DNA of 31,004 nucleotides from a virus. Position numbers and translations under genes: made by a program. The notes below the pieces were generated by a model. That model was not told where the DNA came from. It ran no database searches and saw nothing but the letters and a program-made list of their open reading frames with translations. The stretch lies in the IMG/VR virus record IMGVR_UViG_3300032282_002052, positions 1 through 31,004 of that record, one strand, 5' to 3'. Of the stretch, positions 20,480 to 24,911 are shown piece after piece. How positions within the stretch are numbered: the stretch's first letter is position 1; each line of letters opens with the position of its first letter.

Positions 20480-20780
20480 GTGCATCTCCTGTTACTGCCG
20501 ATTTACGTTTAGCAAAGGCATCTCTTATCCTCTGCCAATGATCTGGTGCTACCTTCTTCGCCCAATCAAGCATGTTGGCATTGTCTTTCCACATGTCGAT
20601 CAGACCATCAACCGAATTATGAACCACGAGAAACTGCACCATTAGTTGCTCGTACATATCCCAGTTGTAGTTCTCTGGATTAAAGGAAGACTCCGTCGTC
20701 TTCCGAGGCAATGGTTTTGGCTGGGGCTCTGGCTGCTTTGCCTGCTCCCCCACCATTGGTAACCTGCGCCGCATTGCCAT
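20463..20780 (-). CDS. Hypothetical protein overlapping the end of erf
   Basis: This 105-residue ORF is in a different frame from erf. The start chosen has GAGGAGG six bases upstream, inside erf, so about 100 bases are shared. The N-terminal 30 residues are Arg/Pro/Gln-rich and low complexity. The C-terminal part (YNWDMYEQLMVQFLVVHNSV, DMWKDNANMLDWAKKV, HWQRIRDAFAKRK) is a plausible helical domain. A shorter form starting at the internal ATG of DMYEQL, after erf ends, is the alternative. Its end overlaps the SSB-like start by 17 bases. Function unknown. Confidence 0.5.
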   Translation of the reverse strand: MAMRRRLPMVGEQAKQPEPQPKPLPRKTTESSFNPENYNWDMYEQLMVQFLVVHNSVDGLIDMWKDNANMLDWAKKVAPDHWQRIRDAFAKRKSAVTGDAHGRVR

Positions 20781-21249
20781 CGTCATCCTCCTCGGCAGTA
20801 ATCCCACAAATCGAGGCCATCATATAGCGTCGAGCATAAGAAATTGCGCTGCCAAGCGCCTGCGGTTTGCTCGTATTCTCTGGCAATGGGTAGCGGCTCT
20901 CAAGGTATTCACCGCTGACGTGCATCAGGCGCGTGACGAGGAAGAACCCCGCATCATTGAACTGTGTGTACTGAGTAAGGGCCAACCCATTCTTTAACAG
21001 CACTGGCATGACCGTGTCGCGGATCTCCGCAAGGTCTGCATACCGGCTCTTAAAATGAGGGTTAGTCTTGTTCAGTGTCGCGTTCTTCATCTGCGACTGT
21101 GCCGTCACCAGAGCCTTTATTAGATTGCTCAAGCCACTGCCTACACCATTGGGAAACGCCGCAGTAATTGCCGGAACAACGGATGGGATCGCCGGGGCGA
21201 TGTTCAATTGTAAGGGCTCCGGAGTCTTCTTGTCTTTCAAGCCAGTCAT
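20680..21249 (-). CDS. erf: Erf-family single-strand annealing protein
   Basis: This is a 189-residue protein. The Erf core is clear: LIKALVTAQSQMKNATLNKT, NPHFKSRYADLAEIRDTV, MPVLLKNGLALTQY, GEYLESRYPLP and SAISYARRYMMASICGI. Erf proteins bind and anneal ssDNA in phage recombination, usually with an exonuclease and SSB, both of which flank it here. A Gly/Ala-rich linker leads to a short acidic C-terminal end (SEDDGVFL). The start is at the ATG six bases after AGGAGG. That places the first ~62 codons in the C-terminal part of the nuclease gene in another frame. A later start would lose little of the core, so the exact overlap is uncertain. Confidence 0.85.
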   Translation of the reverse strand: MTGLKDKKTPEPLQLNIAPAIPSVVPAITAAFPNGVGSGLSNLIKALVTAQSQMKNATLNKTNPHFKSRYADLAEIRDTVMPVLLKNGLALTQYTQFNDAGFFLVTRLMHVSGEYLESRYPLPENTSKPQALGSAISYARRYMMASICGITAEEDDDGNAAQVTNGGGAGKAARAPAKTIASEDDGVFL

Positions 21250-21994
21250 TTGCATCCTCCTTGGTTTCGAATAACTTGACCGCAGTCTTGCGGCCCTTCT
21301 TTACAATGGCCCACTTCTCGCCGCGAAGCCACCGTTCTTGATCTGTACAGTAGTCGATGGGCTCCCCAGCGTCAAGCGATTTCGCATTCCTCTGGTGCAA
21401 AGAAACCCGGCCCTCAATGTATTCTTTCTGCCGGGCGTCATCCCACACTGGAATATCCACCATGACAATCGGGGCCTCTGGGTAGTCAGGTTTGTAGGCC
21501 CCCTGCTTCCGGCTCCAGTCCTTGAGAAGGGCAACAATCTTCATTGAGGAAACGCGCCGACCCACAGCTTCGCGCATCAGGTAGGCGTACATGTTCAACT
21601 GTGATTCCCATTCCCACTTCTCAACCATCACCGAATACACGGAGGTCAACTTGTAATCGTTAATCTCCCAGCTTCCGTCATCCTTCGGGATTTGCAGGTC
21701 AACAGCCCCGCTGATCTTCCACCCAAGGATGTCTAGGAAGAACCTTTCCTCCACAATCTCACCGGGATTTGCCCCTTTTTCCAATACCTTATGCATAGCC
21801 GTCCCCAAAAGGGAAGGGATGCGGTCTACAACGTCTGCCTCCATCTTGTCTTCATTTACACGCTGGAGTATAACGATCCGTGGCGAGTTAAGAAGTTGAG
21901 TGACGGACATGATCGCGTCACCCCTCGAATACTCGTCATTCAATACGTTATTAACGATTGCTGACGGGACGTTGTATCGGTTTGTGTACTTCAT
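21062..21994 (-). CDS. Cas4/RecB-like PD-(D/E)XK exonuclease with cysteine cluster
   Basis: This 310-residue protein opens with a typical phage-nuclease start (NVPSAIVNNVLNDEYSRGDA, then MSVTQLLNSPRI). The nuclease motifs are H68 (LLGTAMHKVLE), D99 in ISGAVDL, D113-x-K115 in INDYKL, and the QLNMYAYL helix near 132. Cysteines C216, C273, C278 and C284 (RCSGNYCGVSQWC) could bind an Fe-S cluster as in Cas4/AddB enzymes. It would make the ssDNA used by Erf, whose gene overlaps its last ~62 codons. There is no ribosome site before the ATG. A promoter candidate at 22002-22029 would start RNA right at it. Confidence 0.8.
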   Translation of the reverse strand: MKYTNRYNVPSAIVNNVLNDEYSRGDAIMSVTQLLNSPRIVILQRVNEDKMEADVVDRIPSLLGTAMHKVLEKGANPGEIVEERFFLDILGWKISGAVDLQIPKDDGSWEINDYKLTSVYSVMVEKWEWESQLNMYAYLMREAVGRRVSSMKIVALLKDWSRKQGAYKPDYPEAPIVMVDIPVWDDARQKEYIEGRVSLHQRNAKSLDAGEPIDYCTDQERWLRGEKWAIVKKGRKTAVKLFETKEDANDWLERQEDSGALTIEHRPGDPIRCSGNYCGVSQWCRQWLEQSNKGSGDGTVADEERDTEQD

Positions 21995-22001
21995 GGAAAG
22001 C

Positions 22002-22029
22002 TACATACGGTTAAAGAATGAAAAGGTCA
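22002..22029 (-). promoter_or_regulatory. Promoter candidate for the recombination operon, leaderless
   Basis: On the minus strand TTGACC (22029-22024) and TATGTA (22007-22002) are 16 bases apart. The expected start of RNA is near 21995, one base before the nuclease ATG at 21994, so the transcript would be leaderless. This fits the absence of a ribosome site. The -35 box lies inside rusA. Confidence 0.5.
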
Positions 22030-22365
22030 ACAAGATTTATTGTCTATGGGGAACCGGCTTCCAAGGCAAACTCCCGGCGATGGACGGGAAAGTTTTTTAT
22101 TAAAAGCCAGAAGGCTTTGGATTATGCAAAGGGATTCGCGCAGCAGTGCCCGGTCCTTGACCCCCTGATTGAGGGGGATGTGCGGGTGACGTTCCATATA
22201 TGGTACGCATCCCGGCGACCAGACCTAGACGAAAGCCTGATCCTCGATCTGATGCAGGACCGAATCTATCTCAACGACCGGCAGGTCAAAGAGCGGCATG
22301 CATACTGGCATTTGGACAAGGAAGAACCCCGCGCCGAGATCGAGGTGGAGCAGATTGATGCTTGA
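22018..22365 (+). CDS. rusA: RusA-like Holliday junction resolvase
   Basis: This 115-residue protein is close to the length of RusA (about 120). It has the N-terminal GEPASKANSRRW motif and the catalytic acidic set D69-L-D71 (RPDLDESLILDLMQDRIYLN) and D87 in LNDRQV. RusA dimers cut Holliday junctions symmetrically and aid late replication or recombination intermediates. Its ATG lies only 23 bases from the divergent nuclease ATG, and no good ribosome site is visible (GGTTAAAGA). The next gene overlaps its end by eight bases. Confidence 0.85.
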   Translation: MKRSTRFIVYGEPASKANSRRWTGKFFIKSQKALDYAKGFAQQCPVLDPLIEGDVRVTFHIWYASRRPDLDESLILDLMQDRIYLNDRQVKERHAYWHLDKEEPRAEIEVEQIDA

Positions 22366-22720
22366 TTCAGATAGCATTTACTCCCCCATCATCAAGCTTC
22401 ATGATGCCACGCTGTCGTCCGAACAACGGCTATGGATATCTGTGGTTATGCAAGCGGCAGTGGATGCCGCATCTACAAACCCCGAAATCAAACTTGAGGT
22501 CATCAATTGGATGGCGAGCGACAACTTTGAGATGGTTTGCGACATGGCAGGTATGTCTATACCGCAGGTCAGGCATGATCTGAATGCAACCCTCGCCGCG
22601 TCTGACCCCAAAAAATCTTTTCGTTTGGCTATGTCATTTAGGTTTTTGGTCCGATCCTTTATTGAGGACAACCTTGGCGAGGTGGACAAGCACCGTGACT
22701 CGGATTCTGACATATTGTAG
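22358..22720 (+). CDS. Small HTH-like phage protein
   Basis: This is a 120-residue protein if started at the ATG overlapping the rusA stop by eight bases; GGTGGAG upstream supports this start. It has a helical N-terminal part (SEQRLWISVVMQAAVDAAS) and then VINWMASDNFEMVCDMAGMS and IPQVRHDL. This reads as a helix-turn-helix pattern that I recall from small conserved phage proteins. DNA binding is inferred. It is the last gene before the non-coding structured region, so it could act there. Confidence 0.6.
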   Translation: MLDSDSIYSPIIKLHDATLSSEQRLWISVVMQAAVDAASTNPEIKLEVINWMASDNFEMVCDMAGMSIPQVRHDLNATLAASDPKKSFRLAMSFRFLVRSFIEDNLGEVDKHRDSDSDIL

Positions 22721-23057
22721 ATCTAGTGCACAGCGTGATACGTTGAAGTGTTGCCTATGCGTTGTCGGTCAAACGGCGGGGCGCATGGGATCTGTCGCTA
22801 CCGTGGGTACTGGCACAGCGACACCCCGAGCCTGCAATCGCGTTGAGGGGCCAGCAGGGAGACACCACTCCTTGAACGAATGACGCGGCGGATCCTTCGG
22901 TGTTTAGGTGGATCTCTTGCTGTCCGACGGCTCGTCTCAAAGAGCAAGATCAGACAGGATGGTAGGCCAACCCTCCGTGAAAGCGGTGGGTTGGTTAGTC
23001 TATCTGCCATCTCTTGCTATCCTCCGGTCTGAACTCAAGAGCAATTAAAAAAATAGA
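22721..23057. ncRNA. Hairpin-dense non-coding region (candidate structured RNA or origin)
   Basis: No convincing CDS lies here on either strand. At least eight helices can be read: 22754-22761/22782-22789 (8 bp); 22793-22799/22817-22823 (7 bp perfect); 22824-22827/22847-22850 crossing 22831-22835/22854-22858 (pseudoknot geometry); 22860-22866/22899-22905 (7 bp); 22916-22921/22943-22948; 22926-22929/22933-22936; 22951-22960 with 23019-23023 plus 23027-23031 (10 bp, three-base bulge); and 22967-22977/22984-22994 (10 of 11 bp, six-base loop). It does not match RNase P, tmRNA, SRP or 6S motifs known to me. Strand and transcription are not established. A replication origin is the main alternative. 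Confidence 0.45.
22912..23044 (+). repeat. Two-copy 36-base hairpin repeat
   Basis: Copies at 22912-22947 and 23009-23044 both begin ATCTCTTGCT, share TCC and CGG inside and end AAGAGCAA, with a more diverged middle. Each can form its own hairpin, and the AGCAAGA of the first copy can also pair with TCTTGCT of the second. Confidence 0.6.
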
Positions 23058-23105: not shown

Positions 23106-24911
23106 ATGTTTGCCCAAGCAAAATCTTCAGAAGATCAGGCCATCATTCGGCAAGTCCATAGTTATGGACAGCATCGGATCACTTGTCCGTTCTGTTCCCA
23201 TACTCGGAAGACTGCCAATCGAAAGGAACGGTGCCTGTCTGTCAAGAAAGACGAGCTTGGCATAACCTACAATTGCCAGCATTGTGGACGGACAGGAGGA
23301 ATTTTGGAAAACCGCTCGCCAAATGTTTTGCCAATGGAAAAGCCAGCCCTGAAAAGGGATGTGACAGAAACGTCTCCTCTTGCAGAGGAGCATTTCTCTT
23401 GGCTGATGAAGGAGCGTGGTATCTCAAAGGAGACTGCCACCAGTTTTGGATTGTATGCAGATGAGGCGTTCTTCCCGGCAGTTGGAGAGCGTCATCCGGC
23501 AGTAGCCTTCCCCTACTTCGACAAGAACGGGAAGATTGTCAGCGCAAAAATCAGGTCGATCAGGGGAAAGGCTTTTACATGTTGGCAGTCCCCTCCATCA
23601 TTCTTCGGGATTTCTAAGATGAAACCCGGAGATGACTTTGTCATTGTCGAAGGCGAGATTGATGCGCTTGCAATGGCAGAGGCCGGGATCAAAGCCGTGT
23701 CTGTCCCCAATGGCGCGCCTGTTAAGGTCATTGATGGGAAGATTAGCCCCGAGGAAGATACCAAGTTTAAGTTTCTGTGGGCGGCAAAAGACCTACTTGA
23801 TAAGGCAAAGCGCATTGTCATTGCCGTTGATGGTGATGGTCCCGGCAGTGCCCTCGCTGAAGAGATTGCCCGCCGTGTCGGCAGGGATAAGTGCTGGCGG
23901 GTGAATTGGCCCGAGGGCATCAAGGATGCAGATCAGCTTCTGCTTGAGCATGGCAAAGAGGCATTGGCTGATGCCGTTAAGAAGGCAGAGCCGTGGCCTG
24001 TCGAAGGCATCCATGATGTCAGCTATTTCAAAGATCAGATCGTTGATCTTTACGAGAATGGAATTGGCAGGGGTGCCAGCACCGGGTATGCGAATGTAGA
24101 TGAACTCTACACCATTGTGCCGGGGCAGATGACAGTTGTAACCGGCATCCCCTCCAGCGGCAAGTCAGAGTTCATTGATCAGATCATGGTCAACCTTGCT
24201 GCCGAACATAACTGGTCCTTCGGGGTTTGCTCATTCGAGAATGAACCCCGCCTTCATATTGCAAAGCTCCTGTCGAAGCGGGTCGGCAAGCCGTTCTTTG
24301 ATGGGGCAACCCCGAGGATGAAGAAGGCAGAGCTTGAGGCTGGCCTGTCTTGGATTGGCGACCACTTCACATTTCTCTTTCAAGAGGATGGTGGTCTGGC
24401 TGATCTTGATAGCATCCTCGAGCGTCTGCGGGTGGCAGTCCTGCGGTATGGCATCCGTGGTGCGGTCATTGATCCATACAATTTTATTGAGCGGCCCCGG
24501 GACGTATCTGAGACGGAGTCGATTAGTAACATGCTGACGCGGATCAAGGCTTTTGCGATGGCGCATGGCATACATGTGTGGTTCGTGGCTCACCCTACGA
24601 AGTTGCAGAAGGGTCTTGACGGCAAGTTGCCGGTCCCCAAGGGGTATGATATCTCTGGTTCGGCAGCATGGTTTGCCAAGGCTGACTGTGGTCTAACCGT
24701 CCACCGTCAGCCAGATGTAAACAAATTGGAAGCCCAGATCCATATCTGGAAGTGCCGCTTCAGTTGGGTGGGGCAGCAGGGAGAGACAAGGCTTTATTAC
24801 GATGTCGGAACAACCCGCTACAACGACTACAACCCCCAAGAGGAAGAAGATTCGTTCCTCTCCGAAGCCGTGGATAGCGGTGGTGTGGCACGACGTACTG
24901 GAAGACACTAA
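23106..24911 (+). CDS. Primase-helicase fusion, T7 gp4-like
   Basis: This 601-residue protein has three parts. An N-terminal zinc-binding domain carries C27-x2-C30 and C57-x2-C60. A TOPRIM primase core has VIVEGEIDALAMAEAG (E182, near residues 176-195) and the metal-binding strand RIVIAVDGDGPGS. A DnaB-type helicase domain has Walker A GIPSSGKSE (347-355) and a downstream hydrophobic strand ending in VIDPYNF. It would unwind the fork and make primers. No DNA polymerase is in the window. The start has a strong GGAGGAG site. The gene end is overlapped out of frame by the next ORF. Confidence 0.9.
   Translation: MFAQAKSSEDQAIIRQVHSYGQHRITCPFCSHTRKTANRKERCLSVKKDELGITYNCQHCGRTGGILENRSPNVLPMEKPALKRDVTETSPLAEEHFSWLMKERGISKETATSFGLYADEAFFPAVGERHPAVAFPYFDKNGKIVSAKIRSIRGKAFTCWQSPPSFFGISKMKPGDDFVIVEGEIDALAMAEAGIKAVSVPNGAPVKVIDGKISPEEDTKFKFLWAAKDLLDKAKRIVIAVDGDGPGSALAEEIARRVGRDKCWRVNWPEGIKDADQLLLEHGKEALADAVKKAEPWPVEGIHDVSYFKDQIVDLYENGIGRGASTGYANVDELYTIVPGQMTVVTGIPSSGKSEFIDQIMVNLAAEHNWSFGVCSFENEPRLHIAKLLSKRVGKPFFDGATPRMKKAELEAGLSWIGDHFTFLFQEDGGLADLDSILERLRVAVLRYGIRGAVIDPYNFIERPRDVSETESISNMLTRIKAFAMAHGIHVWFVAHPTKLQKGLDGKLPVPKGYDISGSAAWFAKADCGLTVHRQPDVNKLEAQIHIWKCRFSWVGQQGETRLYYDVGTTRYNDYNPQEEEDSFLSEAVDSGGVARRTGRH

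What the first reader, a model, noticed from the sequence alone, without database searches (positions are those of the whole stretch)
22721..23057. Hairpin-dense non-coding region next to the primase-helicase: candidate structured RNA
In a genome where most genes overlap or nearly touch, 385 bases have no credible ORF yet contain at least eight readable helices. One has 10 of 11 pairs with a six-base loop, one has seven perfect pairs, and one pair of crossing stems could form a pseudoknot. The long helix 22951-22960/23019-23031 encloses the hairpin at 22967-22994, a nested layout typical of folded RNAs. It matches no RNA class I can recognise. The primase promoter candidate lies after it, so it would be a separate transcript or a double-strand origin element.
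Basis: partly seen in the sequence, partly recalled or inferred. Interest (0 to 1): 0.7.

Follow-up and report, generated by a model that had tools for sequence, protein, structure and literature searches.

The report
Phage structured RNA with twin repeats
The gap before this phage's primase gene encodes a real, folded non-coding RNA, a distant cousin of a function-unknown family (Betaproteobacteria-1) that is widespread in phage replication regions; most members carry two identical short repeats that change together from phage to phage, as if the RNA offered the same 8-letter word twice to a partner nobody has identified.

Summary
Confirmed and extended. Window ~22750-23046 (+) is a conserved ~295-nt RNA, not a chance cluster of hairpins. 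Five phages from other records carry it, four of them directly upstream of the same primase-helicase gene. On five aligned sequences, 45 proposed pairs are 95% paired and 19 pairs show compensatory changes (0 of 500 shuffles match), including a pseudoknot and two covarying hairpins whose conserved loops could kiss. A covariance model built without these sequences still finds the window (E 1e-4, only hit) and links it to Rfam RF02932 "Betaproteobacteria-1"; the window scores below that family's cut-off (28.6 vs 49.4 bits), so it is a divergent, larger variant. About 65 non-redundant relatives lie in phage replication/recombination regions, including Paracoccus phage Shpa and Acidovorax phage AP1; rare chromosomal copies often sit near integrases and defence genes. 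Apparently undescribed: 58 of 104 members (window included) carry twin direct repeats of at least 7 nt near the 3' end that differ between phages but change in concert (55 of 67 changes). No complement was found in the RNA, the phage genomes, or consistently in host rRNA/tRNA. Best reading: a phage RNA presenting two identical single-stranded arms to one partner. Mechanism unproven.

The parts
22750..23046 (+). structured non-coding RNA (ends approximate)
   Evidence: homologues L001, L002, L236, L322, L567; covariation; model R1 hit at 22752-22815
22754..22789 (+). hairpin S1: 22754-22763 with 22780-22789, plus conserved GUCG/CGGC 22764-22767 with 22774-22777
   Evidence: 14 pairs, 100% paired in 5 sequences, 6 with compensatory changes; all six pair types across the family
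22793..22823 (+). helix S2: 22793-22799 with 22817-22823, its loop starting with the family-wide ACYGUGGG motif
22810..22854 (+). pseudoknot helix S3: 22810-22814 (CUGGC) with 22850-22854 (GCCAG); CCUACC/GGUAGG in L002
   Evidence: 5 pairs, 100% paired, 3 compensatory
22856..22873 (+). hairpin S4: 22856-22861 with 22868-22873; invariant loop ACACCA
   Evidence: 4 of 6 pairs with compensatory change
22862..22903 (+). possible kissing contact: 22862-22866 (ACACC) with 22899-22903 (GGUGU)
   Evidence: complementary, almost invariant loops of two covarying hairpins; 92% of cells paired but no covariation to test it
22891..22914 (+). hairpin S5: 22891-22895 with 22910-22914
   Evidence: all 5 pairs with compensatory change
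22929..22947 (+). GGCUCGUC motif followed by direct repeat 1 (AAAGAGCAA, 22939-22947)
   Evidence: repeat pair in W, L001, L236, L322, L567, L002 and in most of the family
22943..23018 (+). tentative stem S6 (22943-22949 with 23012-23018) around hairpin S7 (22967-22973 with 22988-22994)
   Evidence: S7 apical stem rebuilt with different sequence in each relative; S6 complete only in the window
23026..23044 (+). GGUCUGAACUC motif followed by direct repeat 2 (AAGAGCAA, 23037-23044)
23106..24911 (+). primase-helicase gene directly downstream (context, not part of the RNA)
   Evidence: PHROG 239, E 8e-96

Best explanation
SHOWN: the region encodes a conserved, pseudoknotted RNA on the + strand, a divergent relative of Betaproteobacteria-1 RNA (RF02932), found mainly in the replication/recombination regions of tailed phages; near its 3' end it carries two near-identical ~8-nt segments that co-vary as direct repeats. 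INFERRED: it is made during infection, probably early, and works as an RNA. The 5' two thirds form a rigid scaffold that probably binds a widely conserved host factor (invariant GUCGG/ACGGC and ACYGUGGG elements; no single phage gene always lies beside it). The 3' domain holds the two repeats on either side of a hairpin, so both can engage the same partner: a bivalent recogniser whose 'word' is re-set in both copies when the partner changes. The partner is not identified.
For: Covariation in the window's clade and in the core of the RF02932-like class, including a second, 6-bp pseudoknot; homology found by a model lacking the clade; G-U over A-C excess; replication-module context; repeats of 7 nt or more in 58 of 104 members; near-identical scaffolds with different repeats changed in both copies, e.g. 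L284 AAAAGGAA/AAAAGGAA versus L297 AAGAGCAG/AAGAGCAG at 0.96 core similarity; 55 of 67 changes concerted; copies in one genome carry different repeats (G685: GGGGCAU type and GRUGCA type).
Against: No partner was found: no third copy and no consistently enriched complement in the phage genomes, none conserved in the RNA, no consistent site in host rRNA or the tRNA loci examined. The repeats share a loose consensus (NNGRGYAR, my reading), so they are not free to vary like a pure guide. Repeat 2 is mostly A where the copies differ and repeat 1 is G (14:1), so the copies are not equivalent. No expression data.
Confidence: 0.5

Rival explanations
1. Cis-acting leader or antitermination element for the downstream early genes, comparable in role to put or EAR RNAs.
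For: In phages it lies within co-directional early genes; in two chromosomal copies it lies just upstream of co-directional defence operons (L503, L509).
Against: Neighbours differ widely and some chromosomal copies face convergent or unrelated genes (L511, L505); 78 of 78 other primase-helicase relatives lack a hit; it gives no reason for twin repeats.
Confidence: 0.17
2. The repeats exist because one is copied and the copy re-anneals to the other, or because RNA repeat 1 pairs with the DNA template at repeat 2: reiterative copying as in telomerase or rolling-circle reverse transcription, or an R-loop or primer. No third partner would be needed.
For: Identity is kept while the sequence drifts and no complement exists elsewhere; the G (repeat 1)/A (repeat 2) bias fits rG-dT wobble with the template; a primase is often near.
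Against: No reverse transcriptase among the recurrent neighbours listed; the three C/U differences do not fit the wobble model; plain GC-to-AT mutation bias could explain the asymmetry; no consistent skew signature.
Confidence: 0.14
3. A ribozyme that processes itself at the two repeats (cleavage or splicing around the 3' hairpin).
For: Compact double-pseudoknot core with invariant loops in the small class; repeats flank one hairpin.
Against: No conserved internal guide complementary to the repeats; no match to a known ribozyme family.
Confidence: 0.08
4. A DNA element: replication origin with iterons or single-strand hairpins.
For: Close to primase/helicase; direct repeats.
Against: Strand-specific G-U excess; pseudoknots; copies in chromosomal islands; skew extrema not consistently at the RNA.
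Confidence: 0.05
5. Chance hairpins in a decayed or spacer region.
For: Energy z-score only -2.0.
Against: Covariation and distant homologues.
Confidence: 0.01

Closest known systems
Rfam RF02932 Betaproteobacteria-1 RNA
   Same: Same 5' half: S1 hairpin with GUCGG...ACGGC and second hairpin with CYGUGGG; a model made from phage RF02932-like sequences finds the window.
   Different: Window clade scores below the gathering cut-off (28.6 and 31.6 vs 49.4 bits); lacks the GGCGAAG hairpin and its pseudoknot, has hairpins S4/S5 instead; the Rfam model covers 120 nt and not the twin-repeat 3' domain.
IS110 bridge RNA / omega RNA (RNA-guided systems; from memory)
   Same: Conserved scaffold with short exchangeable guide-like segments.
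   Different: The two segments are identical; no recombinase or TnpB/IscB is consistently adjacent; no target seen.
P4 CI / P1 c4 antisense immunity RNAs (from memory)
   Same: Phage RNAs; P4 leader has two identical target sequences.
   Different: No complementary antisense segment found in or near the RNA.
put and EAR antitermination RNAs (from memory)
   Same: Structured RNA in early or long operons without a dedicated protein partner.
   Different: Size, motifs and twin repeats; no conserved cis arrangement.

Membership tests
RF02932 Betaproteobacteria-1 | covariance-model score at or above the gathering cut-off (49.4 bits) | tested here: not met
   window 28.6 bits, L001 31.6 bits; relatives L412, L300, L227, L251, AP1, ctpbd312 do pass
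RF02932 Betaproteobacteria-1 | S1 hairpin with GUCGG/ACGGC and second hairpin with CYGUGGG | tested here: met
RF02932 Betaproteobacteria-1 | third hairpin GGGUGGCGAAG with pseudoknot to ..CUNNCGGGU | tested here: not met
   absent from the window clade (alignments A7, A9)
extended superfamily (this work) | significant hit by a model built without the window clade | tested here: met
   R1: 26.8 bits, E 1e-4 in 314 kb, only hit in the window
extended superfamily (this work) | S2/S3 pseudoknot | tested here: met
   window clade; small class
extended superfamily (this work) | twin direct repeats near the 3' end | tested here: met
   AAGAGCAA twice, 22940-22947 and 23037-23044
cis-regulatory leader | same gene class always downstream | tested here: not met
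   neighbours vary
IS110 bridge RNA / omega RNA | partner recombinase or nuclease gene adjacent | tested here: not met
   no such PHROG among the 25 most recurrent neighbour families on either side
self-cleaving ribozyme | catalysis | not testable with these tools
   needs a biochemical test

The most novel reading that the evidence does not exclude
A widespread class of phage and island RNAs that works by presenting the same re-programmable ~8-nt word twice: a bivalent guide, or a self-templating repeat pair, of a kind not described before.
Probability: 0.3. Interest if true: 0.9.

Novelty: new variant of a known kind. Interest (0 to 1): 0.66.

Why it matters
Phage genomes rarely keep 300 non-coding bases. 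This RNA recurs in replication regions of many different phages and near defence genes in chromosomes, so it probably does something useful in infection or in competition between mobile elements. The Rfam entry gives a name without a function. The twin repeats give a concrete handle: swap the word in one or both copies in an isolated phage such as Shpa or AP1 and see what changes.

Tried and rejected
Nucleotide similarity of the window to annotated phages: none. Rfam at curated cut-offs: none in the window. Third copies of the repeat in phage genomes and G-U tolerant complements compared with other phages' repeats: not consistently enriched; G011 and G012 are high in the G-U count but have G/U-rich repeats. 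Complement inside the RNA: no conserved position. Host rRNA and tRNA as partner: scattered matches only, including the universal tRNA D-arm GGUAGAGCA; not consistent across hosts. Resemblance of AAAGAGCA to the complement of rRNA boxA (from memory) does not hold for the other repeats. A tmRNA-like reading frame after the GCA of the repeats: not conserved on inspection. Reverse-strand RNA: weaker fold. One pattern scan was badly designed and its hits were not followed; later ones gave one new relative, L567. MAFFT misplaced gaps in S1 of the small class, so S1-S3 were also tested by anchored extraction with shuffles; a first structure string had S3 off by one (corrected). Caveat: most members were collected with patterns plus an S1-stem filter, so S1 pairing and its G-U excess are partly pre-selected; S2, S3, the second pseudoknot, and L001/L002 (found through the protein) are not.

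Full report
1. Observation. The 385-base gap between the small gene ending at 22720 and the primase-helicase starting at 23106 holds no conserved ORF. Its + strand folds only modestly better than shuffled sequence (z -2.0; - strand z -0.9). Rfam at curated cut-offs finds nothing in the window; at permissive settings RF02932 Betaproteobacteria-1 appears at 28.6 bits, E 0.0015.

2. Relatives of the window. Searching with the primase protein brought 80 loci. Two of them, L001 (77% DNA identity) and L002, have the same RNA upstream of the primase. Pattern scans added L236, L322 and later L567. In L001, L002, L236 and L567 a primase-helicase follows directly. The other 78 primase relatives have no hit at E 0.1, so the RNA is an accessory of this gene, not a fixed companion. 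In the ten RNA-less relatives I measured, the gap before the primase is about 100-200 bases.

3. Structure. On W, L001, L236, L322 and L002 a structure of 45 pairs is 95% paired; 19 pairs have changes on both sides, against 7.9 +/- 1.9 in shuffles, and the structure far exceeds slid versions. S1 keeps 14 of 14 pairs in all five sequences with six compensatory pairs. S3, the pseudoknot between the S2 loop (22810-22814) and 22850-22854, keeps all pairs with three compensatory. S5 has five of five compensatory. S4 and S5 are hairpins whose nearly invariant loops, ACACCA and (C/U)GGUG(U/C), could kiss; that contact hardly varies and so is untested. The hairpin between the repeats (22967-22994) is present in every relative with different sequence.

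4. A larger family. Patterns built on GUCGG...ACGGC and ACYGUGGG returned many phage contigs; a stem filter left 104 believable members, about 65 non-redundant. In the small class the core has S1, S2, a pseudoknot S3 and a third hairpin whose loop forms a second, 6-bp pseudoknot; S2, S3 and this pseudoknot beat shuffles strongly (z 12.7, 9.6, 6.3). Several small-class members pass the RF02932 cut-off. A covariance model made only from the small class finds the window (E 1e-4 in 314 kb), its clade, and the named phages AP1, ctpbd312 and, weakly, Shpa. So the window RNA is homologous to RF02932 but outside its curated bounds. In variable helices G-U outnumbers A-C (127:4 in S1, 11:2 in S2), which indicates RNA of the + strand; S1 is partly pre-selected.

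5. Where it lives. Recurrent neighbours are exonuclease, Erf, methyltransferase, helicase, primase, RecE and ParB families. In Paracoccus phage Shpa and Acidovorax phage AP1 it follows the helicase-primase pair. A copy also sits on a small Agrobacterium plasmid beside a methyltransferase gene. With the model, 3 of 385 genomes of the class of Kordiimonas and 6 of 399 of the order of Caballeronia have it. Chromosomal copies lie near integrases (L507, L509), a type I restriction system (L509), Hma genes (L511), a ZacB-like gene and a caspase (L503), WYL/MkoA-like genes (L507), but also near ordinary genes. That fits mobile elements and defence islands; it does not show that the RNA is a defence component.

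6. Twin direct repeats. Near the 3' end most members read ...GGCUCCG[repeat]...hairpin...CACCA[repeat]; in the window clade the lead-ins are GGCUCGUC and GGUCUGAACUC. The repeat differs between phages: AAGAGCAA, AUGAGCAA, GGGUAAGAUA, AAAGUGCAG, UCCAGCAU, UCCGAGUA, GAGUCUAAU and others. Among pairs of members with similar cores but different repeats, 55 of 67 changes in repeat 1 occur identically in repeat 2 (the pairs are not independent). Mismatches between copies are mostly G in repeat 1 with A in repeat 2 (14 versus 1 the other way). No complement is conserved in the RNA, no third copy or consistent excess of complements is in the phage genomes, and host rRNA/tRNA give no consistent site. 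Different copies within one genome carry different repeats, which argues against one fixed host target.

7. Interpretation. That this is a functional RNA is shown by sequence evolution. What it does is inferred: direct repeats that must match each other, on a scaffold that stays the same, mean either that both bind one thing or that one is matched to (a copy of) the other. I favour the first (bivalent presentation to one partner) and hold the second (copying or RNA-DNA hybrid) as the main mechanistic rival, because it alone needs no third partner. Cis-regulation, ribozyme and DNA-origin readings are less likely for the reasons listed.

8. Known or new. The papers searched hold nothing on RF02932 or this RNA by name; the library lacks many subscription journals. 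The family is known by name; the divergent window clade, the two pseudoknots, the phage-wide distribution and the co-varying direct repeats are, as far as I could search, undescribed.

Noticed in passing
L505:6608-6726 and contig G043:C28:19633-19751: Caballeronia temeraria carries two copies of the RNA 13 kb apart with the same repeat word (AGGGGCAU); another genome of its order (G685) carries three copies, one lacking its second repeat and one with a different word.
   Followed up: partly
L507, L509, L503, L511: Chromosomal copies of the RNA lie beside integrases and defence genes (type I restriction, Hma, ZacB-like, caspase, WYL/MkoA-like).
   Followed up: partly
L512:6230-6560: Agrobacterium pusense plasmid pC (32 kb) holds an unannotated copy of the RNA with repeats AAGAGCAG, between a hypothetical gene and a DNA methyltransferase gene.
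   Followed up: partly
L484 (Paracoccus phage Shpa) 6019-6198 and 6238-6414: Two small annotated 'hypothetical proteins' (gp47, gp48) overlap the RNA and may be mis-annotated non-coding sequence.
   Followed up: no
L486:3189-3670: Siphoviridae ctpbd312 carries five tRNA genes directly upstream of its copy of the RNA.
   Followed up: no
window 20680-22365: Recombination module next to the RNA: Erf-like annealing protein, PHROG 2139 exonuclease, RusA-like resolvase.
   Followed up: no
family alignment: Where the copies differ by G/A, repeat 1 has G and repeat 2 has A in 14 of 15 cases; the same is seen in the lead-in (CUCCG versus CACCA).
   Followed up: partly
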